From contig OZ037767.1 of assembly GCA_964035545.1 (NCBI GenBank), positions 11,637,081 to 11,701,080 on the forward strand: DNA of 64,000 bases, written 5' to 3'. Made by a program: the position numbers and the translations under genes. The notes under the pieces were generated by a model. The model did no database searches. It worked only from the letters and a program-made list of their open reading frames with translations, and was not told the DNA's origin. This DNA comes from Bugula neritina. Taxonomy: Eukaryota > Bryozoa > Gymnolaemata > Cheilostomatida > Bugulidae. Position 1 is the stretch's first letter. Each line of letters opens with the position of its first letter. Positions 2,876-63,700 of the stretch are shown here, piece after piece.

Positions 2876-5800
2876 GTTAGAGTTTCAGGCTACCAAAAAT
2901 GATTGGCTTGAGTCTGTTTATCAATTTATAATGATGACCTGTTATCAGTGTATGGGCTAAGCCTTGATTTTACATTACTTTCATACTATATCATTTTGAT
3001 AATTTTGTTTTTTTTAATTATGTATAAAACAAAGTCATCCAGCTACTGTTTATAAATTCACATTACAATTGAAAATTTAAAACTGAAATTTTTTAGCCTT
3101 AACACTGTCTTTTTCTGAAGCTCAATTAGTGTTGATTCATCTTTTTGGCTTATGCATAGAATTATAAAACTTTTATATTTCTACTTTTTTGGTAGAAATA
3201 GCAAAACGTAAAATGCAGTATTTCGCACTTGACATGCATTGTTTTGCGATTATTATATAAATCTATAGTTGAGCTATTTAATCGTTTAACTTACAGATGC
3301 ACAACCTAATTGAGTTGATAAAGAAAGAGCAAAAAATTTACAACATAATATTCCATGAGTTGATTCGCCAAGCAACCATAGAATGTACAGAGAGGGGAGA
3401 ACTCCTTGCAGATATCAGACAAAAGTATTCCAATCTCTTGAGCAAAGTTCCAAAGCAGATTAGAGGGTAGGCTGGCATAAAATAGAACTAGCAGTTTAAA
3501 ATTTCTTGGTGATAAGCTCGTAGCGCTTTGCAGCAGATCTGTTATGAGAAACTGAGAGCTCAACTTGAAAGATTCAATCTCTTGTTGATTCAATTTACTT
3601 TTAACCTATTATTTGACTCTTTTGACCTTTAGTCACATGTAAAAGTGTGTTGCAATAATCTCACCAACAATTATTTTTGAAGAAAATTTGTAACCTATAA
3701 GCAATTCTTATCACTAGATGAAAACTTGCCTATTTCCAACAACATATTGTTATGTAGAGATATATTCTATGAAAGAAAAAAATTCAATAGAAGCATTATT
3801 TAAATACTGTTTCAAATAAACACTGTATGCTCCAATATGAGGCTTTTGCTGTCTTGTACCAAGAAATTTGATTTTGTGATTCAGAATTATGCAAAATAGA
3901 TGATGTAAATCATGAGGTTTCTTTAGTGTAGAAAAGGGTTTGGTGAGAGGAGAACTTTAACGCATAAAGTCAATGTTGCTGTTCATTGTAGATTACATGA
4001 TGAGGTGATGGCTCAGAGGGCTCTAGACAGAAGACTTACAGAGGAACTGTTTAGATTCAAGCAGCAAATCGTAGCTCTTACCAAGTAAATTGTTGGGTTC
4101 TTATTAAGTAGTTAATTACTAATTAATAGTTTGCTAAGAAAAAGTTTATCACTAAAAGGTTTAGAAATAACAAGTTATAATATTCTTATTTTAACAATTT
4201 GAAAAAAATAAACTGAGAATTGTATTCTAGCTCTCTTGAGATACAGAAACAATACAATTTGGCAAATTGGGTAATCTTGATCAAAATATTTAGATTGTAT
4301 TTCTTCTTTGAAATGTGATAACATTATTAACTCTAATTTTCTGTGCATACAGTGAGCTGACGGAGGTGAAAGAACATGATAAGCAGGTGACAGAACAGGC
4401 CAAAAGAGCTCAGGAAGATGTAAGCCAACCTCAGTTTATTCCATAGAGTGTGTTTAAGTCATTGTGATTTTCATATTGGTACCAATACAGAGTAATAGAT
4501 TCTATTTGCACTAAGGTGTGACAGGAATACAATATCAATATAATACTTTGCTTTCTAGTTGAGATCTGCACTAATGGAGTCACAGAAGAACGCTAGTCTA
4601 TTGGGAGAGTACCATGACCTCTACGAGCTTCAGAGACAGAGACTCGAGAAGTTGGTAGCCATTTTGACATCTGAGAAAGAGCTCTGGTCTACAGCCACAT
4701 ACAGTCTCTCTATAAAAGTAAGCAATTCTGAAACTGACATAATATTTTTAGCATTAAGCTTAAAGCATATTTACTTTACAGTTAGCCCAGAATAGCTACA
4801 CTGGCAGTACATACTTACAATGCTGGTCGCACATGTTGTTTCTATTGAACACCTTTTTCAAGATAGTAAAATAAATAATTGCGTAACGGTGATGTTCCAG
4901 AGTATATAAAGTTTTACAACTTTTTATATTCTGTAGGTGGTGGAGGAGGGTAACATGGTGACCGCCCGCAGAGCATATATCGCTGAGAAAGCTTGGTCTA
5001 AGTTGACTCACCATTTTGCTGTGTTGCTTAGCGACAAAGACACTGAGGTGTTGACAAAGTTGCAGCAACATATGGAAAGCTGGAGAGATCAAATGGAGTC
5101 CTTCCACATTAATATAAAGCAGATTGAAGAGGATGTTGAGGATGCACTAAAGAATATCAAATCTAATATTGTGCGATGGATTGACGACTTTAAAAAGAAT
5201 TGTTTGTAAGTTTACTTGAATCATTAGCCTATAGCCACAGGGTAATAAGCTGGCATGTAGTGGCAGGTACTCATTTATGACACATGCAATACAGTGTTCA
5301 AAGATATATTGTAAGCTGGCATGTAGTGACAGGTACTATTTGTGACACAGAAAGTTGTAGGAATGTATATTATAACTTTGACCATTTATCATTTTATGTT
5401 GTAAAAACTGAATGTCAACAAATTCAACTACTTACTTTCCCATCAAGTTAACACTTTGTGACTGAGAATTTTAAAGCCTTTTCAACATTTCTATACAGTA
5501 GAAGACAAATCTAATTCATTGTTTATAGACTTGAAAGATTGATACTAACCACTGAATACTGACTTCCATTCACTATTCAGGCATGGTTTTTTGCATCGAT
5601 TGATTACAATATTCTAAAACTTGCTAATGTTGGCACCAAGCTGTAACGTAGTATTTAGCTAATTCAATTGCACTTTTAAACTCAACACACAATCATTGCT
5701 AACTTGTGAAAACTCCTGTAAGTGGAGGGTTGTGCATGAGTACTTCTGAGTATCGAATTTTTATAATTCATGTTACGTTGTCCCACAGAGCAACCAATGA

Positions 5801-8800: not shown

Positions 8801-11800
8801 GCACAAAGTTGGAGGTTATTGAGTACATTGTATGTGTAGACATCATTGTCCAAACTTCAAAACCCCACCTCTATTCACTGCGCTCAATGACCACCAACTT
8901 TATGCTGCTTTACGCCATTTCTAACTAACTAACTCCACCTGCTCGTAGCTCAAGGAATAGAATTCATATTTTAATTACTCCGTATGTACAGCAAACCTTC
9001 CCAACTAACATAGTCCGTTGGACTCAATAGACTAAGCTCCTTAAACTTGTATGTTTTTACTTATCATCTGCTTCAGTGATACCGAGTCAGATTTGCTAGA
9101 TGATGACGAAAGGTATAGATTGTCAGTTACTTTTGCTTCTCTTTGTTCTAGATGTTAACTATCATTTATACTACACGTTATAAATGTGTTTCTGTTTCTA
9201 TATTAAGTTTCCTATATCTCATGTAACATCTAATTGGATGCTGCCCATGCATTAGCTTCGATAGGAAGGGTTTGTTTGTAAAGAACCAAAGCTAAAGGCA
9301 CTTGACATGCTGTGTTTTAAGAAAATTTTCCTAAAGCCAAGTGGCTTGGACTTGCAAAACATTATTAAAAATTCAATCCAATAGTTTGAAAAAAAATATC
9401 AAAAATAAGTTGGTGTAGTTTTGGGCCAGAATTTGTTTTACCAGCTCTATGTACATACATTATAATACCAACTAAATAGCCTTGAGACTTGCATATAATC
9501 AATGGTTTTGTAATTGTGCACACTTATTTATTAGAAGATAAGTTTTGTTGATGAAATAGAAGTTTTCAAGTGTAACAATGTTTGTTTGGAAAGGCTAAAG
9601 CAAATCATGCAGAATTACTTAAACCCAGTTGTTACTGAGATTAGACATACAAGTAGAATCAAGAAATAACTTTTCTGTGCATGCTGTTAGCCATTTTGAT
9701 TTTCTATACATGTAGTGTCTTATATGTTTCAATAGAATTTAACATTTATCTTCTATTTAATTCTTAGCTGTAGTACATGTTGTTTAACCAAAGTCTTTCT
9801 AAGTTTGTGCATTATAACTAACACAACATTATGGTTGCACTAGAAGCTGAGACTTTACACATAGTGCTCTTGCTTACATGTATTTTGTTTGACAAAGCTA
9901 AAACCTGCTACCAACTTCCTTTATTTTGATGCCAACAAGCTTTTCATCATAACCTCTTTCATTTATTGCCAGCCTCTACTACTGTTTAATTTTGAACATG
10001 CACTCTGAATAACGGCAGTACAGCTATAGTAGCCACGATGTATTGTTAGCTGACTAATATTACCTTTATTCTCCTCAACCTCTAATCACTTCATATCCTC
10101 TCATTCTAGTCTGTTTTCTCCTTCCGAAAACACACTCCATTCTAGAAAAATCTCTTTCCAGACTGTCAAGACTCAAACTGATAAAAGAGCGCCCAAGTAC
10201 AATGGTAATCTTTTAAATCTGAGGTCCAAAACTGAGATATACATATACTAATCGCATATTGTTATGTTTACAAGACAAATTTTTAAAATCCTTTTGTTAA
10301 TTTCCAGTCTCTACAACATCCATCATACATATTTACTAGAAATATTTTTACGCGTCAAGAATTAAATTCCCATACACAGACAGGCGGTACTTTCTTACAT
10401 GATTTACTAGTACTTGGTTCCTGCTTACTTAGCCAAGTCTTCTGAATTCAACATAACTTCTCTTTATAACAATTCACAAAGTTATTGTCACTTTTTCTCA
10501 CTCTGTTTAACTTTTTCTGTCATTTCATCTTTCTACTTCCTCAAATACCTCTAGTGCCATTGCGTAAAACCAATAAAAAACCAAGACAGAAAAAACAACA
10601 TGGAAAATTGAATTTACATAAAAACAAGAGTCATCAAAGCAATTTCCTTCAAGTGGTGACAGCATGGTCAAGAGGCAGCCCTCATGCATCAACACATCAT
10701 GTCACGCATCACACCATGATGGAGAAATCTGCTTCTTCCAACACCATCCACTCTAATGTTTCAGTTCTCCCTCTCAGCAATAAAGGATCTTTCGATGACA
10801 AAAGCATTGTTCTGTCAGTTTCCTATTTTCTCTCATTTTACTCGATTTATGTTGTTGAAACCTGACTATGTCATTTATGTTGTCTTGAAGAATGTGTCAA
10901 ATTTTAAGAAATGTGTATTTCAGATTATTGTGCAGTGGCATATTAAACAGATGCAATAATTAATTCAGTTGACTGAAATAATGCATAACTTTGTGTAGTT
11001 TCAGTATGAAATATTTTTTTCAATTACAGTATAGCCTGCAATATATTTGTAGCTATAATACAGACTAGTTAAACCAAATAATTTAAATGTAACATGTTGC
11101 AGGGAGTGGATGTCATTTATGGAGCAGATGGATGAGTGGGTGCTGGCTGTAGACAACTGTATAGAAAGCATTGGTTCTGTCAACACTGAAGACGACAAAG
11201 AGAAAGGAAACATTGCTCAAAAGTGAGTTAGAAGTCTGTTGTAGCAATATCTGAAAGTTTTAGCATTACTGACCAATAAAAAATGTAAGCTAATATTCGT
11301 TTTTTGCCAACCTTCTACTAACGGATTAGTTGCTTTCAATTGACAATGGAAAGTTTTTCTAATTAAGATATATTGTCATATTAACGTTTTATATAACTTT
11401 TTGCTATGATTTTTTTTACCAAAAATTTCTTAAAGCACTATTTTTTGCATTGTTGCCCTGTGCTTAGTTCCTAGTTTTACCAAACTCTTCAATCTATTTC
11501 TGTCTTCTGTCTCTGTAGCATCGAGATTAAGTCAGCAGCCAGCTTAAAGCACTTTAAAGAATCCCTGACACACTTTACTTATATAGCACGAAAATATTCA
11601 TCTATTTCTTAGCTATCACTAGACCACCCCTTTGAGGGTGGATGGCTAGACTATTTTGTTTTATAACAAGATTAGTGCATGCATGTCCAGAAAACTTTCG
11701 GATTTCTAAGCTCTCAGTGCACACGTATTACGCCGGTTTCCGGTCTGCTTCGAGTCCTAGTTACTATATAACTAATAGTAATAATTGCATACTTTCACAG

Positions 11801-14800
11801 CGTTTTATTTTTAGCCACTGCAACACACAGATAAATCACTAAACTGACATAAATTTTAAAACACAGAGTACAACTAAGGCTCAATGAAAAAAACAAATGA
11901 TACCATTTTATTATTGATATTAAGAGCTAAAGTTACTTCCGTTAGAAATTTTGAGCATCGGAAAAATGAAATAGCCTCACCCTCACGATGTAATTAGAAC
12001 GGGTGGCTAAGTACGGCGATAACACGATATTGTTGAAAGAAATTAGCTAAATCCAACGAGTGGTAAACTTTTCTATAAAACATTACAAATTTTTATAATT
12101 GCATATTCAATTATGTAACTTATTACGCTTCCAAATAGATTATCATTACCGTAACCGGATATTACCAATATAACCTGTGCCTAGTAGTAGTCGCTCGCTA
12201 TCTATATAAATTAGATTTCATATTCATATTGCCATTGGACTCTAATGAACAAACTTATTACCTATATTACTAGTTACACTTACTGTCGACATGACTACAC
12301 GAATGGCTTCAAGTTCTAAAGGCAAATGCAAAAGAAGAGTGTGTGAAGCTGCAATGTGTTCGTACAAGGAAAAACACATGTTTAAATGGCCTGCTGATAC
12401 TCATACTGCGTGTGGTGAAAAATGGACCAAGTTTGTCAATACGAAAAGAAAAACCTTTCTGCCTGATAACAACTCTCGTTTGTGTTTTCAGCATTTTGGT
12501 GATGAACAATTTACAAACATGGGCATGTATAAAGCAAAACTCATTAACATGTAAGTGAATAACTCACTCAAACTCATAGTCATAGTGATACTGACTAATG
12601 ACTTAGTGATTGTGATATAATTAGACGATAGGCTAATGATAGTTTTTTTAATGTTGATTTTCAACAATAAGTATAACTATAACTATCAAGTATTACTACA
12701 AGTTGGTATAAGTCAATAGGATTGTCATGACCGTGTTGATTCAATTTCATGTGACTATGACATAAACTTGCAAGTACAAGTTTGCATTTATGATTTACAC
12801 GATAACCATTATTGTAAGGAAATTCATTTATAATGGCGATAATATGAAAGACTTATGATTATCAGAATGTGTCATAGTCACTTGGATACATACCATTAAT
12901 ATTATGATTCATACGCACTGATACTCATGCTATGAGTATGATACTGGTAATGGTGCCCATCATCAATACCAGTAAAAATTAATGGTAAATATTGTTCACT
13001 TATTGAAAGAATAAAAATTCATTGTCTTTGATTTACTCTTTAGATTGCATTTAGAGAAAACAGCAGTCCCAACTATTCATTTAGTGGAAACTGAGGGTGC
13101 AACTGGATGCACTCCATTAACTCCTCGGAAACAAAGTCAGCAGGCGGCCACTATCACACCTAAAGAAGCTCGCTGGTTAAAAAGAACAGACCCTGGTTTT
13201 CTGTAAGGATTATAATATTGAAAATGCGATCTTGAGCAATAAAATTGAAATATGATATAGACAGCAATGGAGATTTTCTGCAGCTGTTTCAATAATACTT
13301 TTCCAGTTACCTTCATATATAATAATATTTTAGAGCTTTGCCAAGTCAAACAAAAAAACCAGCTCTCCATCGTAAGCCAGAAAAGAAGGGCCTACAGAAA
13401 GGAATAGGACACAACAAATATGTGCAAACACCTAAAAGGATGCAGAAAAAGATTAGAAGCAAAGCTGTTCAATGCTGGTATATAGAAATATGGCGAAATA
13501 GTATTGTTCACTTAGCTCAAAAACTGAATTCATAGCTTTTCTCCATATTTATTTTTATTTAAAATGCATGTTCTAATGCAACAAAAAACCAAATATTTTT
13601 GTGTAATGGAAATAATATTTTTAATTTTCCACCTCAAGGTGTGTCAAAAATAAATTTGGACAATATATCTACTTGTAGTCTCAGTTTCCATTGAAATGTA
13701 GATATTGTAGAATATGATCTTAGAGTCACTTGAAAAGTTCAGCGCAAAAATAGTCACCATATTGAAGTATATTCACCATTATTGCAACTCAAACTCAACG
13801 GTAAATTAATTTCAAAGGTCAGGGAGATTGCAAATAATGAGGTTTATTCTCATAGTAAGCTGTACACACTACAAGAGGCAGTAGCAACTGACTGCTACTA
13901 AAAATCACCAGAGTGTTAATGTTCATAAATCTTCATTGTACACGAATTTGCTGAACATCCATTCAGCAAATTCTTCCTCATCTTCAGTTGGGGGGAATGT
14001 AGCTTGCACCCAATCGTATAAGCAAGCTGGTAAAGGGCGTCTCTCACCCTTTTTAATATCTGGAAACAGCCAGAACACCAAAAACCGGTAGCTGCAGAAC
14101 CTTTTTTTAGTGTTGAGAGAATGGGCCTTCTCATCAAACAAATCATCTACCAAAATAAATGATTGGCTAAATAATCAAGTAAGACTATCTAGAAAAACTA
14201 ACAATGACAGTTACTGATCTACAGTAGCAATTGACTAACCATGATATCTCAGGTAGCTGCTGTATGCAACTTCTAATACAGCTGGTTGCGTCAATTGCTG
14301 TACTCCCGGGTGCTGTGTTATACATTCCATGCTGCTATCTAATCGAAGGTTTGCAGCATGATCACGGCAACAAACAGACTGTTCCACTGTAGGCTGATTT
14401 TGGCAGCGGTGGCAAGTGCACCACTCCGTGGCTGGCCTTATATTTTTCTACAAAACAAACAAGCTTTTCTAAAAACGTTATTACCAGTATCATCCACATT
14501 AAGTCCATTAATTACTGTGTCTAAATTTGTTTCCTGTATTTTTCTTTGTATTGAAAATTGAGTCCAATGAGGCTGAAGTTTGAAAATACTTTAAAATCAT
14601 GGGTTTTAAAATATTCCAAGTTTGCATTACTGTTCAAACTATTTTTATATTTATAGTTGAAAATTAATTAGATTTTTTATATTAAAACAAACTCATAATT
14701 TTTGCTATGAAATAAACTAATTTTCAGAAATTTTAAAATATTTTATTGTTGTTAGTACTATATGTTATACTATAAAAGCAGAAATTCAGAGAAATAGGGG

Positions 14801-17800
14801 GCTTAGAAATAAAATACTAAATGTTATCATCGTGAATGCAAGTTTGACATGAATATGTATGTGATTAACTTATTTTGTTAAGGATCGGTATAACCACAAT
14901 TACAATAAAAGTGAATAATAATCATCATTATTATGCATTTATAACAATACAGTCTTTCCCTTGACTTAAATTATCAGGTAAATCTAACTACAAATAATTA
15001 ATACTAATACCTGTATTGGTAGTAGTAATAACAAAATTAGTATTGATCAAATATTTAATTACTTGACTGGAATTTGTAATCATTAAATTTAATGATTATC
15101 ACTTTATTATTAATAATATTATATAAACCGATACTATAGCAATCATCAAATATTTAGCTTGTAATTTCAATTTGATATCATGCTTGCTCTAACGCTTTAG
15201 TAGCACAAAACTCAGCTATATTAACTAATTAAGCCAGGATCAATACGAGCATTAGCATTGAGCATTGGAATTACGATTACAAAATGAAAATGAAATATTA
15301 TAATTATAATAATTTATAACTTATACTAGCTTATACTTATAACTTAAAGTATTACTATTACTATTAGTATTACTATTAGTATTACGGTATTAGTAACACT
15401 ATAGTTTATAAAATTAAATCGTACTGATACTGTAAAATTATAAATATTATCACCTGTTAGTGTTGCTCATCAGTAACAGTAAAATCCTTGTCATGACCAT
15501 CATCTCCATTTTCATCTTGATACGTAAACGGCTCAAACTGATAGCCCATTACTTCAGAAATCTCAGTGACAGCGTGAGTGTGATTGTCATAGTCATACTC
15601 ATTGCGATTCTCACTGTGCTCTAAGTATTCTTCGTCAGAGCCAGATATGTTCATATTAATATCGTATTTATGTTATTTCTGTATTAGGTTTATCTTTATC
15701 ACAATTACACTGCACAGACTCGGACACGGTAAGTTGGTAGCTATGTATTTATTGCCGCGAAATTTGTTTATGAAATAAAACCTAAATTCCACAAAAAAAA
15801 TACTAATTGGGGGCTAGACAGACGTCCGATAAATTAAAAATGCTAAAACTAAGGTTACATGCAACGGAAAATATAGCCTATACTTATTTTCCGAATGTCT
15901 TACAGGCGGCGTTTCCATCTATTTCTCGCAACTGCGGTGTAATACGTCACAGAAGGGCGAAAAAAATTCTCGAAGTTTTTTGGACATGCATGCACTAAAA
16001 CTGTTATAAAACAAAATTGTTTAGACCTGAAACCCTAAAAGAGTGTTAAAATGATAGCTAAGACATAGATGAATATTTTCATGCTATATAAGTAAAGTGT
16101 GTCAGGAATTCTTTAACACTGTGTTCACTTCATTGTCTCTTCAAACAACAGCTGTGCTCTATACCGAACTGTAGATCTATATTTGGTAGACTAGTATATA
16201 CCTGCTTATTCACTTGAATGTTACAGGATAGATGTGCATGAGATGATGAGGAAGGCCCATATGTGGAGTGTGACTACTAACAACTCAATAGACAGCGAGG
16301 ATTCTAAATATATTGAACAAGTATGTGACTTGCTATAATTACAAGCCATAATTTAGTATTTGCATGAGATGACTCATAAGATGACTCATAGGGTGACTCT
16401 TATGATGAGTCATAGGGTGACGCTTATGGTGAGTCATAAGATGACTAATAGAATTACTCATATAATGACTCGTATGATAGCTACTATACTATAGCTTTTA
16501 TAGAACTTTACAATTTAGCAAACACATTTTGACATTTTTGAAATTTTACTTGACTCTAAATGCTGTTTTTGCTAAATATATTTTCTTTCAAAAAATCGTG
16601 CAGAAAAGACACTTATAAAAGTCATCAAAAGATTAAAGAAAATATTATTAGGATTTCTCAATGGTTTAAATGTTAAGTTGCCAAAAGTTCTTCAAACCAC
16701 CCCTGGTAAATTACAATTTAAGCTGTTTGACTTTGTAGGTGACTCAGTTACACACGCAGATGGTCAAGTGGATGGTACATATTCTTCTACGTCTAGCTCC
16801 GGACATGCCCGGCACTTCTGTGGAATCCATTGAACAGTCTCTTGTCAATTCTCCCTCAATTAATGACCTGGTAGAAGAAGCCACAGTCCTCTTTCAACAA
16901 CTCGATTCATTTTCACTTCTTATCCATGGGTAGGTCAACATGGTGGTGATGGTGAAAGTCTATGAAAACTATAATTGTGGTGATGAGATGCAATATCTAT
17001 GAAAGATGGTTGCAGTGGTATAATATTATATAGGCTAAATGATAATTTTTTTTGTTTTGTGGACAATGACATATTTTATGCTATCATGATCAATGAGAAG
17101 TGAAAAAAGATCTGAAAACTTATGCAACTGACCAAATATAAATAGGAATATACTCAATTAATAAAACCCTATCTAAAATTTGTTCCCTACGACCCTAAAG
17201 GTAATCTGTCGCGTAGGTATTTTGTACTAGAATTCTTAATCCTTTGAATCTCTATAATCTGGTATTAAGATCTGTGCATGAGAAATACATTTCTTTTGCC
17301 ATATTGAAGGACAAAACTGTTTTATAATTAGATACATAAGGCTAATGCACAAGCAAATAATGCATATTGAAAGATATTTTCATCTCCTTACATTGGGGAA
17401 TGTATTTGTATTATGTATTAAACTCTATGCTGGTAAAAACCAGTAAATATAAGCCTTTTTATAACTAATACTAAATTTGGTATGTATATGTGGTGCTGTA
17501 ACAGTATGCCTACAAAACTAAACACCATATAATGACACATCTACCTAATCCGTCACATTACACATGATTTGGTACAACTTGAAAATTCTGGAGCGTATTT
17601 TCTAGTTCATGTGAAAATATTGTGAGACTGAGAACTCAGGACCGAGTAGCTAGTGGTGATGACATGGCTGAGAAGGAGCTGAATGACTTGCAAGGAATGA
17701 AGGTGAGTTTGCTGTCATGGTATTCTATATTTTATAGACATACATACTCTGTTGATAATACAGCTAATTGTATATTACAAATAGTATATGGTACTTAGTG

Positions 17801-20800: not shown

Positions 20801-23800
20801 ACTGCTTGAGCGTTATTGGTTGATATTGTGCTCAGCAACCTTGAATACTAGCGTTATAGTTAGCACGTGCAGCATAGTTACTGGCGTTCACACGTCACGT
20901 ATTAGGCTATTCTTTTTCATGGCTGAAAATTTTACCGCCCTCAAAATTGGAATTTTGAAAAGCTGTTTTCTAGGCATATATCCCTTTGCAAAGTCACAAT
21001 TGTTTGCATACACATTAAATTATAGTTCATAATTATAATGTGATTGTAATAAACTAAGATTGAGCAATCCTTTAAAATCAGCTCTTGTAACCATACATTG
21101 ATTTACAATTATTGACTACTTAGATATTTAACACACTTTGTACAATGACACAGTGCAAAATATGTCTCACAAAAAGGTAACATCTAATATTAAGTCACCT
21201 ACCTTAGTATGTCTAAATTTGTCCAAAATTATGTATATTTATAGACCTTTGAACTTTTAGTTTAATATGAGCAGAGATAAAATATATTGAGGCGTTTGAT
21301 TCTTGCGTAGCTAACTAATTTAACAAACTAGTTTAGAATTTTGGTTTGTTCTCAATACAACCTGCTGCAGTGTATTGAATGTACTATCAGAAGTGTAAGT
21401 TACAAATGTATTATAAGCAAATGTTGATGCATTACTTATATTGTATCACAGCTGATGCTCAGTCTAGTGTGGCTGGTGATGACGAACCACCGGCTGCAAG
21501 TTCTGATGTGAGGAGGGAAAATTCTGTACCAGAAAAAGATTCATCTTCTGTGAGTCAATTTCATAATTGAATGTTATAATTAGAATCTACCATTTTGTTG
21601 GTATAGACTCGAATACCCACACACATACAAACATACACACCCACACACATACAAACATGTACCTAATCATAATGCATTTTTATTCATTCATACAGCAACT
21701 ATATATCATTATATTACTACTGTATTACTATGACACAACTATATTAATTAATGATATTATACTACTATATTTTTACTATTAGGTTACTATTGCATTGATA
21801 TTATATTACTACTACATTACTATTATATTACTATTATATTACTACATTACTATTATATTACTATATTGCACCTCATGGTTGGCAAAAAAATTAAGGGTAA
21901 GCAACTCATGATTTCTTACAATGCAGGAAAATGAATCAGCTGAAGCCACAAACGTCTTGAAAGTAGAAGAAGCAGAAGCTGGGACAGAAGCTGGGACAGA
22001 AGCTGGGACAGAAGCTGGGACAGAAGCAGATAGTGTTGAACCTGATGCTGAGAAGGCCATGGAGCCTGTACCACCCAGTCAACCCAAACCTGTAAGACTT
22101 TATCATATTTTGTGCCACACTTGTTGGTTATTGCAGCTTAACAGCAAAAGCTACCTAGTAAGAGAGTGTGAAATAAGCAAAACCTTTTTAGCAACACAAT
22201 TTTTCCCTCTATGAAATATAACTTTCAAACCTGTAACCTTCAAACCTTCAACTTTCAAACCTGCAACCTTTAAACCTTCAAACCTGCAACCTTCAAATAT
22301 TTAGCCTTCACAGCTTTAACCTTCAAACATCTATTCAAAGCTTATAACTGTTGTAGAGATCGGAAGGCTCTAGACCAGCGTCTGCCGTAAAGCAGGCTGG
22401 CCACACTCCTGGCCCAAGTTCTCGCCAACCTTCAGCCTCAGGCTCAACTGAAAAGTCTGCTGAAATGTCAAGGCCACCTTCTATTAAGAAAGATGATAGC
22501 CTTAGTAAGATAGAAGTTATTGGCAGAGATGACAATACTAGACCAGCCGTGCTCCCCGAGCCTACCCCTGATGAGGTATGGTCTTGTTTAGAGATGCTGG
22601 ATTTATATGTTACTATGAAGCATTTGGCTGGTAACAGTTATGGTGATTCATAGACAAACATTAGAAAAATGTTAAAAGCATTATTTGTTTGAGAAGAAAA
22701 TTCGTTAAAAAGACTGCTTGAACCAATCAAAATATTTTTACTTACAGAACACAATAATTGATTGCTTACCAGGGGGTGGGGGTTTGGTTTATTGTAAAAC
22801 TAAAGTGAAAACAGTTACAAACTTTATTTAGAGATTTTGAATTTAGCTTTAAATTAATTGATAAAAAGTTATAATATTGAGATTATAATTGATTTAATGA
22901 AGTTTTAAACATGAGAGCTTGTACAACTGTCAGCCAGTCCACTAGAATGTCTTATGCTATCTGAAATCGTTTCAGCCTCCTCCAAGACCCAGTAGTGGTA
23001 TGCCGATGGCTGTGGACTCTCAAAAAGCATACGATGCTCTAAAAACTGTTCAGAAGCTACAAGTTCAGTTGCTGTAAGTCATCTTTCTCCCGTATCGCAA
23101 ATACCCAATACAAAAAGAGGGCTTCTTAGTAGATATAGAAACTGCATGCTGCTAAGGCATGGACTTCTACTACTAAAGTTAATGCAAATAACATTTTGTT
23201 TAGAGTGGTTAAATTTGAACCTAAGTATTTTTAATTTTTTTCAATTGATTCAGTTTTTAAGCAGAAATTCAATACAGAAAAAACAGGAAAATAAACTAAA
23301 TTTCTGCATTTTTCTGTTTGCAGAGTATAGATTTTGATGTTGATTGATTATCACTTAACTAGATTGCTGTTAGCTGGTGTTACCTACTCTATATAACTGT
23401 TATTACCTGGTCGCCTATTATGGCTAAAGGTTTTTACTTCATACAGTGATTAAAAATTATTGTTTGCATGCTGGCCATTCATCTCAACAACTTAATAACT
23501 TCCCCTGACTTACTATGACTTATTTTAACTTACTATGACTTGCTTTGACTCACTATGACTCGCTTTGACTTACTATGACTTGCTTTGACTCACTATGATT
23601 TGCTTTGACTCACTATGATTTGCTTTGACTTACTATGACTTACTTTGACTCACTATGACTTGCTTTGACTTACTATGATTTGCTTTTTACTTACTATGAC
23701 TTGCTTTGACTCACTATGACTTGCTTTGACTTACTATGATTTGCTTTGACTTACTATGATTTGCTTTGACTTACTATGATTTGCTTTGACTTACTATGAC

Positions 23801-25503
23801 TTGCTTTGACTTACTATGACTTACTTTGACTCACTATGACTTGCTTTGACTTACTATGATTTGCTTTGACTTACTATGATTTGCTTTGACTTACTATGAT
23901 TTGCTTTGACTCACTATGATTTGCTTTGACTTACTATGACTTACTTTGACTCACTATGACTTGCTTTGACTCACTATGACTTGCTTTGACTTAGTATGAC
24001 TTGCTTTGACTTACCATGACTTGCTTTGACTCACTATGACTTGCTTTGACTTACTATGACTTGCTTTGACTTACTATGACTTGCTTTGATTTACCAAGAC
24101 TTACTTTGACATAACATAACTTGTTTTGACTAACTTTGACTTGCCCTGACTCTGTACAACTAACAGATTCAATAAACTTACACAATAAAACTTACACCTT
24201 ATTTCTAATAGTTTATAAGAAGCGCCCAAAAGCAAATACTTTTAAAACTTTCTAAGCTATACATATTAATCTACATTGTTAAAACAAGAATATAATATAT
24301 CTCAGTTGTCACAAATGTCTCTAACTCACTTCTGCATCAACAGAGAGACAGAGCAAAGAGCTCAAACTGCTGAAGAAAGTGAGGCTAAGAAATCTGCTGA
24401 GCTGGTTGAAGCTCTGAAAAAGCTGCGAGCTTTAGAGAGACAGATGGAAGAGTTGCAGAGTGGTGGTCGCGTGTCTACTCCCAAACCCGCTGCTCCACCA
24501 GCTGCAGCTGAGTATGTCTGAGCAAAATATTTAGTTTATATAACAACTGCCTCCAAGTGTGGTGATGGAGATATTTCAATTGAATTTCATACAAATTTTG
24601 GGTTGAGATTTAAGATAATCTTTTTTGCATGAATTCAACAGGCTTTGCATGGTCCATCATCTGAAACAGGGGCTTTTTAAAATTTGTCACCTCAATTTTT
24701 TAGGGGATTTTTAGAGAAATATTAAAAACTTCAATAACACAAATGAACTTTATTTGCATGTAAACTTAAACTCATTCATATATAGATGTCGTGAAAAACT
24801 TCTGACTCTTCACTTGTTTCTTTATATTCAGACTCTAATCTCTTATGTGTATTTTTTGAAGTGGGTGTTGTAATGGAGAAATTAGTTAAAATAGCCTAAG
24901 TTCCAGATGGGAATATAGCAAACAAGTCATATACTCGAGATAACCTCAACCTGTACCATAAACCTAAATTCATTAATAAAGTTGAAGGCATAAAAAACCC
25001 ACCCAGGTTTATAGTCACCATCCCCTTATGTGCAGAGTTTTTAAAGGGAGTTAAGGACTTATTCAGATTGGGCACATAAATAATTATGACTGGATGCTCT
25101 TCCTAACATCGCCAATGGGCTTTGCTGGGGTTCAAACTCATGACTCCGTGTTTACTAATTGCCAGCACTCTACCCACTATGCCACAGCACTCTACCCAAT
25201 ATGCCGCAGCTGCTCTCTAATTGAGACTATAAAAGTTTCTCCTATTGTGATCATTCCTTGAGGAACGTTTCATGCTCTCTAAATTGTGACTGTTACCTGA
25301 CAAGTGAGAACTGGACAATTCAGTGTTGTTTCCAGTTTAGGATATTCTCAAAGTGTTGCAACATTTACATAAATATTTGCAGAGATACTGCTTCACCAGG
25401 GGCAGCGGCACCTTCCTCTCTTACCAGCTCGGAAAAAACTGAAGCTACTAAAAAGAAATCTAAATCTGGACGACCAAGCTCCCAGTCTAAAAAGAAGAAA
25501 TAA
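536..25503 (+). CDS. AXDND1: AXDND1 orthologue (axonemal dynein light chain domain-containing protein 1), 3' part, 29 exons
   Basis: Exons: 536-639, 1225-1416, 1880-1942, 2423-2479, 2767-2875, 3297-3466, 3992-4084, 4353-4419, 4559-4717, 4937-5205, 7027-7108, 7366-7545, 8210-8358, 9077-9112, 10110-10204, 10555-10813, 11103-11222, 11519-11557 plus 16117-16170 (split by a transposon), 16227-16320, 16739-16929, 17606-17702, 18515-18638, 20031-20063, 21452-21549, 21927-22091, 22357-22575, 22976-23073, 24344-24511, 25383-25503. All have GT-AG borders and compatible phases, giving 1,234 residues and a TAA. The motif PDEYHIVKNKGVLGLEYHE followed by LTVFPSM is what I recognise from AXDND1, a sperm-flagellum/cilium protein carrying a p28-type axonemal dynein light chain region. 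The middle is helical and coiled coil, and the tail is low complexity with a basic end. An AATAAA lies near 25914. The exons at 9077, 10110, 10555 and 20031 are less certain. As the sequence stands, the transposon in exon 18 introduces an early stop. Confidence 0.82.
896..1195 (+). repeat. tRNA-derived SINE copy, + strand, in AXDND1 intron
   Basis: A tRNA-like head (GTGCTCTAATGGATAG as A-box region, GGTTCGAATCTC as B box) is followed by a body with the segment GATGTTAAGAAGGGCATTAA and, further on, GGGGATGG...ATAAACCTG. The same head and body order appears at 24980-25215, 30015-30235, 55622-55800, 58714-58790 and 63000-63172 on the other strand, so this is a dispersed family. Exact ends were not determined. 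Confidence 0.65.
3297..8358 (+). other. AXDND1: AXDND1 helical/coiled-coil exons 6-13
   Basis: Eight exons encode heptad-rich, charged helices, for example DLYELQRQRLEKLVAILTSE, and a stretch with conserved Trp (SWRDQMESF, IVRWIDDFKKN, IKEWAV, ISGWTECGVEVFNRH). There is no catalytic motif, which fits a structural axonemal or assembly factor. The intron 5206-7026 (1.8 kb) separates exons 10 and 11 and contains no exon I can support. Confidence 0.75.
5206..7026 (+). other. AXDND1 intron 10: short direct repeat, G tract, otherwise plain AT-rich
   Basis: The left end holds an imperfect direct repeat around 5242-5349 (units share GCTGGCATGTAGTG and CAGGTACT). A G-rich tract at about 6961-6978 lies between two copies of ATGAACTGACTTATG (near 6910 and 6983). 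Nothing else stands out. Confidence 0.5.
8791..8915. repeat. Fold-back (inverted repeat) element in AXDND1 intron 13
   Basis: The left arm 8791-8823 (starts GCTAGAAGCAGCACAAAGTT) is nearly the reverse complement of 8883-8915, with a loop of about 60 bp. Weaker matching extends a further 15-20 bp outward on each side. Transcribed, it would form a long hairpin. It may be a decayed MITE. I saw no clear target-site duplication. Confidence 0.5.
9077..10813 (+). other. AXDND1: AXDND1 exons 14-16: low-complexity linker, tentative
   Basis: Exon 14 (9077-9112) is a small acidic exon (SDTESDLLDDDE). Exon 15 (10110-10204) is Ser/Lys-rich (HSRKISFQTVKTQTDKR). Exon 16 (10555-10813) is basic and His/Ser-rich (KKPRQKKQHGKLNLHKNKSH) and would end at the modest donor CT|GTCAGT. 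Phases agree (2 to 2, 2 to 1, 1 to 2), and exon 17 starts with one base that completes the codon. However, exon 13 or 14 could also join exon 17 directly in frame, so one or more may be skipped or false. The intron 9113-10109 shows nothing else. Confidence 0.45.
11558..11745 (+). repeat. Left terminal inverted repeat of the TTAA transposon
   Basis: It pairs with 15930-16112 in reverse complement. The outer 60 bp differ at only a few positions. Between the outer and inner matching blocks, the left arm carries a small hairpin (CCACCCCTTTGAGGGTGG, about 11624-11641) that the right arm lacks. Confidence 0.85.
12291..13535 (+). CDS. THAP-domain DNA-binding protein, three exons, carried by the transposon
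   Basis: Exons 12291-12550, 13044-13202 and 13334-13535 join in phase (2, 2) to 206 residues and a TAG. AATAAA lies at 13649-13654, 114 nt downstream. The N-terminus has the THAP zinc-finger pattern: Cys-Ser-Tyr after CEAAM, then MFKWPAD, a Trp (EKWTKFV), and the closing Cys-Phe-Gln-His-Phe (RLCFQHF). The rest is basic (KKPALHRKPEKKGLQKG) with no recognised catalytic domain. THAP domains bind DNA and occur in P-element and Kolobok transposases. At 206 residues this is too short to be a complete transposase, so it may be a terminus-binding partner or a remnant. The start ATG was chosen as the first in the open exon; a second Met is 4 codons later. Confidence 0.7.
13843..13848 (-). terminator. 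Poly(A) signal AATAAA of the ballast-domain gene
   Basis: On the - strand, AATAAA lies 75 nt past the stop codon of the ballast-domain gene. Confidence 0.5.
13923..15654 (-). CDS. Stand-alone P2X7 C-terminal (ballast) domain protein, three exons, carried by the transposon
   Basis: Exons on the - strand: 15654 down to about 15457, 14447-14240 and 14146-13923. Exon 1 is acidic (MNISGSDEEYLEH) with the phrase MGYQFEPFTY. Exon 2 has the cysteine block WCTCHRCQNQPTVEQSVCCR followed by CITQHPGVQQL and AYSSYLRYH. Exon 3 has KRFCSYRFLVFWLF, RRPLPACLYDWVQATFPP and an acidic end. This order matches the P2X7 receptor intracellular ballast domain, where the cysteines bind zinc and the fold binds guanine nucleotide. 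No channel, membrane segment or signal peptide is present. Exon 2 to exon 3 joins cleanly (phase 1). Exon 1 has an in-frame TAA one codon before the best donor (CAG|GTGATA). A weaker donor 5' of the stop (ACT|GTTACT) would keep the frame. So the gene is either slightly damaged or uses the weaker site. Confidence 0.75.
15930..16112 (-). repeat. Right terminal inverted repeat of the TTAA transposon
   Basis: Reverse complement of the left end, as described for 11558-11745. It ends ...GTCAGGAATTCT directly before TTAA (16113-16116). Confidence 0.85.
16370..16475 (+). repeat. Short tandem repeat in AXDND1 intron 19
   Basis: About 6-8 imperfect copies of a 14-16 bp unit based on GATGACTCATAAGATGAC. 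It lies in the intron between exons 19 and 20. Confidence 0.6.
17780..18190 (+). repeat. Higher-order minisatellite in AXDND1 intron 21
   Basis: The basic motif is CAGTACTTAGTGTATAGTAC and variants. The phrase TAGTACACAGTACACATTGC recurs at about 17831, 17964 and 18097, so the array has a 133-bp higher-order period. Open frames across it are repeat artefacts. Confidence 0.75.
18639..20030 (+). other. AXDND1 intron 22: small tandem repeat near 19745-19850
   Basis: Mostly AT-rich sequence. A three- to four-copy repeat of about 25 bp (TACTGTACTATACTTACTTA) lies at 19745-19850. No exon is supported. Confidence 0.5.
20064..21451 (+). other. AXDND1 intron 23: no supported feature
   Basis: The region 20440-20960 is less AT-rich than its surroundings and contains several ACGTGAC/GTCACGT words in both orientations, which hint at a decayed inverted-repeat element, but I could not define its ends. 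No coding exon is supported. Confidence 0.35.
23500..24130 (+). repeat. 20-bp minisatellite, about 30 copies
   Basis: The unit is CTTACTATGACTTGCTTTGA with few substitutions (CTCACTATGAT, CTTACTTTGA). It lies wholly in AXDND1 intron 27, and the copies drift at both ends. Confidence 0.85.
24980..25215 (-). repeat. tRNA-derived SINE copy, - strand, with duplicated head
   Basis: Read on the - strand it starts GAGAGCAGCTGCGGCATA, then has the B box region (GAGTTTGAACCCC), GGCGATGTTAGGAAGAGCAT, and GGGGATGGTGACTATAAACC. Part of the A-box head is duplicated in tandem (two copies of GTGGCATAGTGGGTAGAGTG-like sequence at about 25165-25210). It belongs to the same family as 896-1195. Confidence 0.65.
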
Positions 25504-51700: not shown

Positions 51701-54700
51701 AAAACACCAAGGTGTAAGGGATTCTGAGCAATGACTTCATTTCATAGTCTTAAAGGAGCATTTGCTAGTCTTGACTTAATTGGCCAGTAACTATTGATAG
51801 TTGATTGGCTGAAAATTCAGATTTTCTTTTAAATTTCTTACTTTACAGGTTATTAGCTCAAAAAGAGTTGCCAATGACTCTAAACGCATAGAACTAGTCT
51901 ACTATGTCACTGTGGACAAAAGACTGACCCCGCCCACTCGACTAGTGAATATCACGTCCTTGCTGTCTATACAGGAAATAGCTCTCACTCTTGGAGAGGT
52001 AGTGGATGAGAAACAAGCCGTGCAGCCTTACAGTCACTCTCTTATAAACAGTTGTCGTGGGTTCCTATAGTTGATAATAAGTCTATCAGCTCATATTAAC
52101 ATTTTGTGTCTGTAGTGTTATAATTACCCAGTAGTCCTGTGGTGTAATGGTTAGCACTTGCTTGCAAACCAGAGGTCTTGGGTTCAAATCCCAGTGGGTG
52201 CAACATTTTTTCATAGTATTTGTAGAATATGAAACTTTCACAGCTACCATCTATTTTAGTTTAACTTGTTCAACTATTATATCACTCTACTAATTCATAG
52301 ATGTATAGATAGTCTGGTGGAATGTACCTCTTTTACATTAGTAGAGATCCTGCATATTATGGGGTGAATTATAGGGTGGACAGATACCTGCTCAGAAGTG
52401 GTCTTATAGTGTTCAGGGTGTTTAGTTACTGTAACTTACTGTCTCTAATATCTTGATACACCTGAATATCACATAGCCTGTGTTTCAGCCATGAGCACTG
52501 CGGGGACAGAGTTTATTCTGGCTTTCATGGAGAACTACGAAGAAGGTGATTGGCCAAAGTATGCAGACTATGCACTCAGACTATACTTCACTACGGGTGG
52601 ACCACAACCCTCTCAGGTAGCTAAAGGACCTCAGTCTATTGTGAAAGAAGTTTATCATCAATTTTCAATCTTGCTATAATACTTGACTGTATGTGTTGCT
52701 ACAATATTCATACTGTGTGATGCTACAATATTCATACTGTGTGGTGCTGCAATCTTCATACTGTGTGGTGCTACAATATCCATACTGTGTGTTGCTACAA
52801 TATTCATACTGTGTGGTGCTACAATATTCATACTGTGTGATGCTACAATATCCATACTGTGTGGTGTTACAATATTCATACTGTGTAGGTTACAGTAGAA
52901 GCTGGCCTCTACTTCAGAAAGCAAATGTTGGTTCGACCAGCAACAGAGAACTACATGATTATACCGAGTGGCTTCATGACCAGAAAGACAGCTATTCAAT
53001 CAAATGTGCTCCGCGTCTCCTCCACACTCCCTATAAATGGTAGGAACTCTGCTGATTTTTCTAGCTGATTCTGATATACTAGTTAAGCAGCATGCTGACT
53101 ACCTTATTCTGGTATACTAGTTAAGCAGCATGCTGACTACCTTATTCTGATATACTAGTTGAGCAGCATGCTGACTACCTTATTCTGGTTTAGTTGTAGC
53201 CGTCAACAGAGACTACCTGACCCAGGATTCTGCACTAGTTTTACCTCTCAACCAGCTTGGCACCGAGTACCTTGCTGCAGGTGCCTCTTCTAGTGGCACG
53301 CTGTCGCAGGTGGCTGTGGCAGCGTATACTGATACAGTTGTTACAGTGACCTTACCGTTGCAAAGTAAGCTATGTATTCTCTCACTGTACTAAGAGTTGA
53401 ATTTCAGTAACTTTGTGAATAATAAAAACAATAAAGCATTATTTACACTTACAAATAGAGTAATGGCAATAAGTTTAATAAATTTTTAAATTAAAACACA
53501 AAATATATTATTTTAGTAGATTCAGGATTTAACCTAGTTTTTTTGGCACTGTAAATATCTAAAGATAAGAGAATATTTTACTTGTTCAAAGAAGATAATG
53601 CATTGAGTTTCGGTATAAAATATGGTATAATGTTACAGCTCCACTCATGACTTTCATCAAATTATGTTATTAGTGCTTGTGCTTGCTGTGAAACCATGAG
53701 TAGCATTTGTTATATTAAGTTTGAAGAGCCCAACTGTAGACTGTGGTGTATATGTAGCATACTGTAGTGTAGTTGTGTAGTATACTGTAGTATATACATG
53801 TAGCATACTGTAGTGTATACATGTAGCATACTGTAGTGTATACATGTAGCATACTATAGTGTATACATGTAGCATACTGTAGTGTATACATGTAGCATAC
53901 TGTAGTGTATACATGTAGTATACTGTAGTGTATACATGTAGCATACTGTAGTGTATATGTAGCATACTGTAGTGTATACATGTAGTATACTGTAGTGTAT
54001 GCATGTAGTATACATGTAGCATACTGTAGTGTATATGTAGCTTACTGTAGTGTATACATGTAGCATACTGTAGTGTATACATGTAGTATACTGTAGTGTA
54101 TGCATGTAGTATACTGTAGTGTATACATGTAGCATACTGTAGTGTATATGTTGCTTACTGTAGTGTATACATGTAGCATACTGTAGTGTATACAAGTGCC
54201 CTGCAGTGTGTACATGTAGACAATTGTGGATACTGAAATGTATATATGTAGTATACTGTAGAGTGTAGTGTATATTGTAGTGTACACATATAGCATACTG
54301 TAGTGTATGCATGGAGCATACTGTAGTGTAGGCCTATACATTATTAAGTTATTTTCTTTAAGCCAATGGCGTCCCCACTGAGTTCAGACTTGAAGGGAAA
54401 TCATACACAACAAATATGACTGTAAATATCAAAGCTATGAAAGTGCTTCAAATACAGATAGCAGGTGACATCACTGGCACTAGGTTAGTGTTGTATGTAT
54501 TCCTTCCCTCTCCCATTTCTGTCTCTATGCCCACATTGATGTCTCTATTTCTACACTGATGCCTCTATGCTCACACTGATGTCTTCATTTTTTTCCATTA
54601 TCTCTATTTTAACAATGATTTATTGTACATTATACTATTAGTTCTATTTTCACATTGATGTCTTCACTCAGATCTCTACATTGACCTCTAATACTTTCAG

Positions 54701-60700: not shown

Positions 60701-63700
60701 CTTTACAATTAAACCTTCTTGTAATATAACATATGATTATGTACAAATACTGTCTGTACTTCTTTTTTCCACAGCTATTGTTGATTCTGTAATGCACGGA
60801 TTTATTAACTTTAGTTGTTGGTCTAAACAAGATGATGTTTAGTGAAGATATTTTGAGGAAGATAGAGCTCTCTCTCCATGATCTCTACATTGGTTTATCT
60901 AGTCTAATGCCAGCAGCAAACACAAACACTAGCGTAGAAGTCAAGGTTATTATGGAGTCTTATTTAATCACTAATATACACTATTTACTCTTTATTTCTT
61001 TAGTTATCAGTTGACCGTAGCTATATCTGGTATCTATGTTAAAACAGTGCTCCTTTCGTATCTCACAAAGCTTTGGGTGCTACAAACTGAATTCGTGAAT
61101 TAGTAAAATGCCAAATTTAACCCAAGGGTCAGTTAAATTTCGCCATTTTGTTCCTATACACACATACATAAAGTTAGTAATCTGTGTTATTATATATTAC
61201 ATATACTAAGTTATACTATTACTATAGTATATATTACATATACTAAATTATAATATTACTATATTATATATTACATATACTAAGTTATATTATTACTATA
61301 TTATATATTACTCGTACTATGTTATACTATTACTATATTATATATTACATATACTAAATTATAATATTACTATGTTATAGATTACAAAGGTGGAGGTATA
61401 CAATGTCAATCTCACCAGAGTTGTATTCCATGTGAGACAAGGTGAGCCTTTGGAAGCCAAAGAAGTGCTCTCAGTTCTAGGAGGAGTGAAAGCTGACTCT
61501 CTGTCAGATCTGCTCAACCTCACCATATACCAGTCCTTTACAGGTACTGCCGATAGTTGTCAGCTTCCTGCCTCCTTTTTTTATGAGTTCCTTCCACCTG
61601 TTTGCTGATGCTGAATGGATTACAAGTATTTTAAGTTTTTAAAGAATTTTCTTGTATAGTAAAACATTTAGCAAAGGGTTGATGCAGTACTATACTATTA
61701 TATAGAGTAGTTAGCCTACTATGTATTATATATAATAACACACTAGTATACTATTATATAGAGTAGTTACTATGTATTATATATAATAACACACTAGTAT
61801 AATATTATATAGAGTAGTTACTATGTATTATATATAATAACACACTAGTATAATATTATATAGAGTAGTTACTATGTATTATATATAATAACACACTAGT
61901 ATACTATTATATAGAGTAGTTACTATGTATTATATATAATAACACACTAGTATAATATTATATAGAGTAGTTACTATGTATTATATATAATAACACATTA
62001 GTATAATATTATATAGAGTAGTTAGCCTACTATGTATTATATACAATAACACACTAGTATAATATTATATAGAGTAGTTACTATGTATTATATATAATAA
62101 CACACTAGTATACTATTATATAGAGTAGTTACTATGTATTATATATAATAACACATTAGTATAATATTATATAGAGTAGTTACTATGTATTATATATAAT
62201 AACACACTAGTATAATATTATATAGAGTAGTTACTATGTATTATATATAATAACACATTAGTATAATATTATATAGAGTAGTTAGCCTACTATGTATTAT
62301 ATACAATAACACACTAGTATAATATTATATAGAGTAGTTACTATGTATTATATATAATAACACATTAGTATAATATTATATAGAGTAGTTACTATGTATT
62401 ATATATAATAACACACTAGTATAATATTATATAGAGTAGTTACTATGTATTATATATAATAACACACTAGTATAATATTATATAGAGTAGTTAGCCTACT
62501 ATGTATTATATACAATAACACACTAGTATAATATTATATAGAGTAGTTACTATGTATTATGTATAATAACACACTAGTATACTATTATATAGAGTAGTTA
62601 CTATGTATTATATATAATAACATACTGTTATATACACACACAGCATATCTGAGCTCAGCAGAATTCAACACTACGTTGGCCGAGTTAGCAGCAGGCGGGG
62701 ACGTGGAGTCTACCCAGGACAGCCCCACCCCTACCTGGCTGACAATTCTCTTAGGACTCCTAGTTTTTGTGATGGTGGTGACGGCTGTAGGTGTGGCAGC
62801 CCACAGCTACAGGCTGAATAATAAATCATTGGCAGCACAAAAACCTCGTAAACAAAAGTTGAAGGTATTGTATCCCTTTATTGGCTGTCTATAAGAACTC
62901 CTTTCCATATTCTGTGTTTTAGTTTTGTTGGTTTTCTTTAAAAATAATTTTAGATTTACCATCTTCAATCCTCTCTCCTCTGGTCTTTTCTCTCAGGAGT
63001 TTATAGTCACTATCTCTGTACAAATGGTTTTTAAAGCTGGCTGAGGACTTTTTGATGTGGCACAGGAGAAATTATGACTGAATGCTTTTCCTAACACCAC
63101 CAATGGTGTTTAAACTCAAACCTTGTTGCTTGGCCAGCCCTCTAACCACTACACCACTGCTGCTCTCTTCTGGTCTTATCTCTACTGACTTTATATTGAG
63201 CAGCTTATTCATCTAGCCAACCATTAGCACTTCTCGCTATGCTCAGATATTTCTTATAATTAAACTCATCTGAGGGAGTTTCATGTTTTCTGTGCTGTTC
63301 AGTATCTTCTAGCAATAAACAGCATCTGGTGTCACTCAAGTTGAAAACATTGTGAAATGGTTCTTCCATACATAAAGTTATACTTCACAACACTTCACAG
63401 CATTGTCTCTGTCTCAACTCAGTCGGTTTACCTGGTAGGTGAAGATGTTGGAAGCTGAACCTGGTGGAGTTACAGAGATACCAGACAGAGTTAGTTACAA
63501 GATGGAGGAGGAAGTACACACTGGATTCGGCACTCCTCTAGGTGACACCAGCCTTCACCCAGCGCCATCTGGTGGCAAAGGTCACAAATATGGTAATGGC
63601 AAAGGTCATGACTTTGATAATAGCAAAGGTCATAACTCTGGTAATGGCAAACGTCATGAATCTGGTAATGGCAAAGGTCATGACTTTGGTAATGGCAAAG

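What the first reader, a model, noticed from the sequence alone, without database searches (positions are those of the whole stretch)
11558..16112. A TTAA transposon carrying a THAP protein and a P2X7 ballast-domain protein
Seen: inverted repeats of about 180 bp, TTAA on both sides, and two convergent spliced genes inside, one THAP and one with the WCTC..C..SVCC cysteine block and later motifs of the P2X7 receptor C-terminus. Known: in vertebrate P2X7 this zinc-binding ballast domain is fused to the channel, and stand-alone relatives exist in invertebrates. Inference: at least some stand-alone ballast genes travel on Kolobok-like DNA transposons, which would explain their spread and suggest a mobile origin for the domain in P2X7.
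Basis: partly seen in the sequence, partly recalled or inferred. Interest (0 to 1): 0.95.

Follow-up and report, generated by a model that had tools for sequence, protein, structure and literature searches.

The report
Transposase-less Kolobok carrying a P2X7-ballast gene
A bryozoan jumping gene carries a gene for the zinc-binding tail that vertebrates fused onto the P2X7 receptor; the link between this transposon group and P2X7 has already been published, and this copy is a defective member that has lost its transposase core.

Summary
Window 11558-16112 (4555 bp) is a DNA transposon with ~140-bp inverted repeats, TTAA on both sides, termini AG...CT, and two convergent spliced genes: THAP (Pfam 29.1 bits) and the P2X7 ballast domain (P2RX7_C, 47.1 bits; seven cysteines aligned). 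It belongs to a family: 22 of 22 copies with both ends located have TTAA on both sides, and 22 loci carry both genes. Chromosome lengths identify the genome as Bugula neritina (Bryozoa).

Two corrections. First, THAP is not separate cargo. A 7.4-kb copy has exons of a Kolobok-type DDE transposase between the two genes, so the THAP exons are the transposase's N-terminal end. The window element lacks about 2.85 kb and is non-autonomous. Second, the main inference is in print: Kojima & Bao 2022 report that KolX, the second protein of Kol0-lineage Kolobok transposons, is the P2X7 ballast domain, and that P2X7 arose by fusion with it.

So this is a new family of a known kind, in a phylum not on that paper's Kol0 list. 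Mildly interesting: at least five different internal deletions removed the transposase core but kept the THAP exons and all or nearly all of the KolX sequence. Position alone could explain that.

The parts
11554..11557 (.). left target-site copy TTAA
11558..11697 (+). left terminal inverted repeat, starts AGAATCCCTGACACAC
12291..12550 (+). THAP exon 1 (first exon of the truncated transposase gene; GT donor at 12551; in-frame ATGs at 12291 and 12303)
   Evidence: splice sites read by eye, no transcript
13044..13202 (+). THAP exon 2, with the AVPTIH box (AVPTIF-type)
   Evidence: splice sites read by eye
13334..13477 (+). THAP/transposase exon 3; if unspliced, the frame runs into a stop at 13533
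13704..13706 (.). junction of an internal deletion of about 2.85 kb relative to the longer copy L018, with 3 nt shared at the two edges; the missing piece carries transposase core exons
13923..14146 (-). KolX (ballast) exon 3, including the stop codon
14240..14447 (-). KolX (ballast) exon 2 with WCTCHRC...VCC...C
15454..15654 (-). KolX exon 1; in this copy a private 6-bp insertion puts a TAA in frame at 15459-15457
15973..16112 (-). right terminal inverted repeat, ends ...GGAATTCT
16113..16116 (.). right target-site copy TTAA

Best explanation
This is a non-autonomous, internally deleted member of a Kol0-type Kolobok family in the bryozoan Bugula neritina. The complete architecture is a THAP-DDE transposase gene running inward from the left end and a convergent KolX (P2X7-ballast) gene running inward from the right end. 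In the window copy the middle of about 2.85 kb, with catalytic exons, is gone, so only the transposase's THAP exons and KolX remain. The copy is presumably moved in trans by a transposase from a complete or related element that binds its ends and inserts it at TTAA (inferred). KolX is presumably an accessory protein of transposition, and the leftover THAP protein could compete for the ends (both inferred, untested).
For: Shown: TTAA at both ends in 22 of 22 copies with both ends located and termini AG..CT, matching the published Kolobok 5'-RR / YY-3' rule. THAP and P2RX7_C pass their Pfam cut-offs. L018 matches the window copy at 97% on both sides and adds about 2.85 kb with exons reading TTDRH...DTWHICK and SELESFH. 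A second family in the same genome (L042, L043) has GDGRCDSPGH / TTDRH..DTWH / SELEAFH convergent with a ballast gene. The L042 exons joined pass the Pfam cut-offs of Mutator (51.7 bits, cut-off 26.5) and DDE_Tnp_ISL3 (24.3, cut-off 23). The seven window-type copies differ by 0.37% on average, so their spread was recent. Published: KolX of Kol0 is the ballast fold, and Kolobok transposases usually have a THAP domain with an AVPTIF box.
Against: No intact autonomous copy of this family was seen. L018 shows no first-D exon and has a frame-shifted KolX, and its own piece of transposase scored below the Pfam cut-offs (Mutator 21.1 against 26.5). In the transposase search the next nearest locus reaches 82% over 33 residues only, so the transposase that moved the copies is inferred. 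Kol0 membership by transposase phylogeny was not tested. A role of KolX in transposition has no direct evidence, and changes between copies were too few to show selection.
Confidence: 0.92

Rival explanations
1. A self-contained two-gene element in which THAP and the ballast protein are cargo or an accessory package, with no transposase gene in its ancestry.
For: 22 loci carry both genes, and only one of the 23 end-flanked ballast loci (C8, L018) matches the transposase query.
Against: L018 and the related L042/L043 carry the transposase core between the THAP end and KolX. Different copies have different deletion edges around that core.
Confidence: 0.03
2. A piggyBac-type TTAA element. Kojima & Bao mention a few piggyBac families with a KolX-like C-terminal part.
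For: TTAA target site; the remark about piggyBac.
Against: Termini AG..CT follow the Kolobok rule. The L042 transposase has GDGRCDSPGH and DTWH and matches Mutator/ISL3-type models, with no piggyBac model at E <= 1. The seven ballast cysteines are present, most of which the paper says the piggyBac versions lack.
Confidence: 0.02
3. The derivatives spread because they keep the THAP fragment and KolX: a truncated DNA-binding protein plus KolX acting in trans as repressor or helper, like the KP product of the P element (KP recalled, not looked up).
For: At least five different deletions that cannot derive from one another (types B, C, D, E and G) remove the core and keep the THAP exons and all or nearly all of the KolX sequence. 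Over all eight types the right edges lie at L018-element positions 4806-5253, around the KolX stop at about 5216.
Against: Deletions from interrupted gap repair centre on the middle of an element anyway, and the core is in the middle. L026 and L055 lost both genes and still have both ends with TTAA. Many kept genes are broken: THAP in L019, L022, L023, L024, L025, L050 and L051 (and one base short in L016), KolX in several copies. Variant counts are inconclusive; in type B pN/pS is above 1 for KolX.
Confidence: 0.12

Closest known systems
Kolobok, Kol0 lineage (Kolobok-1_XT type) with KolX
   Same: TTAA target, RR..YY termini, THAP-DDE transposase plus a second protein with the P2X7 ballast domain (published features; seen here).
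   Different: The window copy lacks the transposase core, and 22 of the 23 end-flanked ballast loci give no match to the transposase query. The host is a bryozoan; the paper names vertebrates, annelids, cnidarians and sponges for Kol0.
P2X7 receptor C-terminal ballast
   Same: Domain match over almost the whole ballast, seven cysteines aligned.
   Different: Stand-alone, not fused to a channel. The P2X matches of this genome lie elsewhere.
KolobokP
   Same: Same superfamily; known from Bryozoa (Membranipora).
   Different: KolobokP has long terminal direct repeats and a His-Me nuclease; here the ends are inverted repeats and the second gene is KolX.

Membership tests
Kolobok superfamily | TTAA target-site duplication | tested here: met
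   22 of 22 copies with both ends located (18, 4)
Kolobok superfamily | termini 5'-RR and YY-3' | tested here: met
   AG..CT in the same 22; rule
Kolobok superfamily | DDE transposase with C/DxxH motif | tested here: met
   Met for the sister family L042 (D, D, DTWH, E) and in part for L018 (second D, DTWH, E, but no first D). Not present in the window copy, which lacks that segment
Kolobok superfamily | THAP domain with AVPTIF-type box | tested here: met
   PF05485 29.1 bits; AVPTIH in the next exon
Kolobok superfamily | H2CH zinc finger in the transposase | not tested
   feature named; I did not look for it
Kolobok Kol0 lineage | second protein KolX with ballast fold and seven cysteines | tested here: met
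   PF20478 47.1 bits; cysteines aligned to P2X7 by eye; no structure was predicted
Kolobok Kol0 lineage | transposase groups with Kol0 in a tree | not tested
   no Kolobok reference sequences were on hand
piggyBac | piggyBac transposase | tested here: not met
   the transposase of sister family L042 matches Mutator/DDE_Tnp_ISL3 models, no piggyBac model at E <= 1
P2X7 receptor | ballast fused to a P2X channel | tested here: not met
   17 P2X matches, none nearer than about 120 kb to a ballast match listed (150 of 171 listed; compared by eye)

The most novel reading that the evidence does not exclude
Deleted Kolobok copies form a lasting two-protein parasite of the parent element: a THAP-only repressor plus KolX. 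The repeated sparing of both genes by different deletions would then reflect selection, and KolX would be a trans-acting transposition factor. That function would be what P2X7 inherited.
Probability: 0.1. Interest if true: 0.6.

Novelty: new member of a known kind. Interest (0 to 1): 0.27.

Why it matters
It is independent support, in one chromosome-level bryozoan genome, for the published view that stand-alone P2X7 ballast genes are transposon genes. The gene sits at 23 related loci, each near the same kind of end, and in a second Kolobok family whose transposase shows all three catalytic motifs. The recent, nearly identical copies would be good material for asking what KolX does.

Tried and rejected
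Whole-genome search with PF20478 itself found nothing here or in the 14 control genomes, probably because the gene is split into short exons; a protein query found 171 matches. Clavelina lepadiformis as host was rejected on chromosome lengths. A sponge was dropped because the COX1 of contig C295 looked right by eye with the invertebrate code, AGA = Ser. pN/pS between copies: too few changes. The public protein search gave 4 metagenome proteins and no named host. Rfam on the window: no match. A tree of the KolX region showed that copies sharing the B deletion do not form one group, so conversion or recombination between copies is likely, and deletion types should not be read as clean lineages.

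Considered and not used: a probability for the deletion pattern. Only 40 of 214 candidate ends were scored, and internal deletions are expected to centre on the middle. Type I (L053) was dropped from the count of deletions that keep both genes, because its right end and KolX exon 1 are missing from the fetched stretch. The odds of the selection rival were lowered from 0.15 to 0.12 for that reason.
Full report
WHAT IS THERE. The element spans window 11558-16112 (4555 bp), with TTAA at 11554-11557 and 16113-16116. The ends form an inverted repeat of 144 nt including the TTAA, 85% complementary. The + strand gene has a THAP domain (PF05485, 29.1 bits) and the - strand gene a P2RX7_C domain (PF20478, 47.1 bits over residues 6-124 of the joined exons). 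Against the PDB the latter finds only P2X7 receptors (3 sequences at E <= 1, best 0.00012), with the cysteines aligned by eye.

GENE MODEL. KolX reads as three exons with GT-AG sites (15654-15454, 14447-14240, 14146-13923, minus strand). The phases join exon 1 to exon 2 (phase 0) and exon 2 to exon 3 (phase 1). I read these; there is no transcript evidence. In the window copy a 6-bp insertion adds an in-frame TAA at the end of exon 1. None of the 19 other copies that could be aligned there has it; two further copies, L027 and L053, do not reach it. So the window copy's own KolX is probably cut short.

COPIES. The left 201 bp has 41 matches (40 of 214 first-look candidates scored). I fetched 20 loci and later 7 more. 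In 18 of the first 20 I located both ends, and all 18 have TTAA on each side and termini AG..CT. The other two, L020 and L027, show only one end. Of the later 7, four (L050, L051, L052, L055) have both ends, all with TTAA; L053, L054 and L056 are broken. The ballast protein query gave 171 matches, 150 of them listed. They form 24 loci with a match of at least 80% identity. Of these, 23 lie within about 3.1 kb of an end match; the exception is a 41-residue piece at C3:8768118. A query with THAP exon 3 gave 23 loci, all 23 candidates scored. Twenty-two of them are the same loci, one (C2:7694305) is THAP only, and one ballast locus (C7:9004656) has no THAP.

THE MISSING TRANSPOSASE. Copy L018 (C8, about 7.4 kb) aligns with the window copy at 97% on both sides and has about 2.85 kb more in the middle. 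That piece encodes, in spliced exons...SSNAMELEGLIRCRNQLEKLGIPVISLTTDRHVQIQAYMRTKWPNVQHFFDTWHICK... and ...ENTSELESFHALLN.... By my reading these are the second D, the DxxH motif and the final E of a Kolobok-type transposase. A second family in the genome (L042, L043) also has the first-D exon GDGRCDSPGH, with the transposase convergent to a ballast gene. The L042 transposase scores 51.7 bits for PF20700 Mutator and 24.3 bits for DDE_Tnp_ISL3, above both cut-offs. The shorter L018 piece stayed below them (Mutator 21.1 bits). No match to the first-D exon of L042 was found in L018, and L018 has a frame-shifted KolX. So I have no intact parent of this family. L042 and L043 show stops in some stretches of the translated matches, and I did not establish that either is intact.

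DELETION TYPES. In L018-element coordinates: A 2150/4997 (7 copies including the window), B 2387/4946 (8 copies: L019, L021, L023, L024, L025, L027, L028, L052), C 2540/5126 (L017), D two gaps (L016), E 2799/5253 (L022), G 2306/4806 (L050), H 2329/5192 (L051), I about 2786/5219 (L053). A and H contain B's deletion and might be nested in it. B, C, D, E and G each keep some sequence that the others lack, so none can derive from another by further deletion. These five keep the THAP exons and all or nearly all of KolX; E loses the last codons. L053 and L027 lack the right end and KolX exon 1 in the fetched stretch. L026 and L055 lost both genes, and L056 most of both. This could be selection, or simply that the core lies in the middle, where interrupted gap repair deletes. 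Many kept genes are broken: THAP in L019, L022, L023, L024, L025, L050 and L051 (exon 3 of L016 is one base short); KolX in L018, L022, L023, L024, L027, L028, L052 and L053, with an exon 1 donor change in L017 and a 10-base loss near the stop in L051. A tree of the KolX region splits type B. I do not lean on the pattern.

AGE AND SELECTION. Type A copies differ by 0.37% on average (maximum 0.62%); seven of the eight type B copies differ by 1.2%. Variant counts in coding exons are too few to decide on selection. Type A has 3 THAP, 1 KolX exon 1 and 2 ballast nonsynonymous changes against 0, 0 and 1 synonymous. Over 20 copies pN/pS is 0.49 for THAP, 0.57 for the ballast exons and 1.02 for KolX exon 1. 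In seven type B copies it is 0.49, 1.94 and 1.22.

OTHER BALLAST LOCI. The L042/L043 family has both genes. A high-copy repeat carries a decayed ballast gene: 86 of the 150 listed matches, counted by hand, are short (about 40 residues), 48-63% identical and usually hold a stop; I assume that they are one family. Four fetched copies (L045-L048) are 94-100% alike over nearly all of their shared length. Three blocks of it align with L042 at 73-82% and skip most of the transposase, so it looks like a deleted relative, but its ends were not reached. L044 holds six tandem copies of the last ballast exon. The P2X channel matches of this genome (17 at exon level) lie at least about 120 kb from any listed ballast match, so here I see no ballast fused to a channel.

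HOST. The lengths of contigs C1-C9 given agree with the nine chromosomes of Bugula neritina tzBugNeri2.1: 35.64, 33.58, 32.42, 24.80, 17.72, 16.05, 15.81, 13.35 and 10.88 Mb (PMC11480708, passages seen). The held assembly has 295 contigs and 215.85 Mb against 320 scaffolds and 216.00 Mb in the paper.

WHAT IS KNOWN. PMC9587614 (Kojima & Bao 2022; [quoted passage not shown] PMC7016195 (listing, start of abstract and two passages) is an earlier paper on the ballast domain in invertebrates; 'transpos' and 'Kolobok' do not occur in its main text. PMC6004289 (passages) gives the THAP/AVPTIF features. The searches 'P2X7 ballast transposon' and 'KolX' each listed only PMC9587614. 'Kolobok P2X7' also listed PMC9319628, with one occurrence of each term, which I did not open.

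CONCLUSION. New family of a known kind, in a phylum not on that paper's Kol0 list (Bryozoa are listed there for KolobokP). I did not search for other reports of Kol0 in Bryozoa. The window copy is a young, non-autonomous deletion derivative.

Noticed in passing
window 42327-39284 and 36123-32948, - strand: Open frames of an LTR-type retroelement: reverse transcriptase, RNase H and integrase-like stretches (42327-39284), and gag with a zinc knuckle plus a protease-like stretch (36123-34337). Seen in the translation list only; names recalled, no profile run.
   Followed up: no
L044 (C6:12938500-12947500): Six tandem, near-identical copies of the last ballast exon with one cysteine-rich ballast exon at 8330-8115, in about 6 kb; no inverted repeat found at E <= 1e-3. 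Possibly a host-side expansion or a broken array.
   Followed up: partly
L045-L048 and some 80 further loci listed: High-copy repeat carrying a decayed ballast gene, related to the L042 family; its ends were not reached.
   Followed up: partly
G000 C295, C17, C196, C65, C6:11174072, C4:5169166: Several COX1 matches: those on C295, C196, C65, C6 and C4 contain TGA codons, C17 has none, C196 and C65 are split, and C6 and C4 look like nuclear copies.
   Followed up: no
window 61691-62626, 23506-24144, 53740-54330: Long tandem arrays (units of 51, 20 and 23 bases, or multiples).
   Followed up: no
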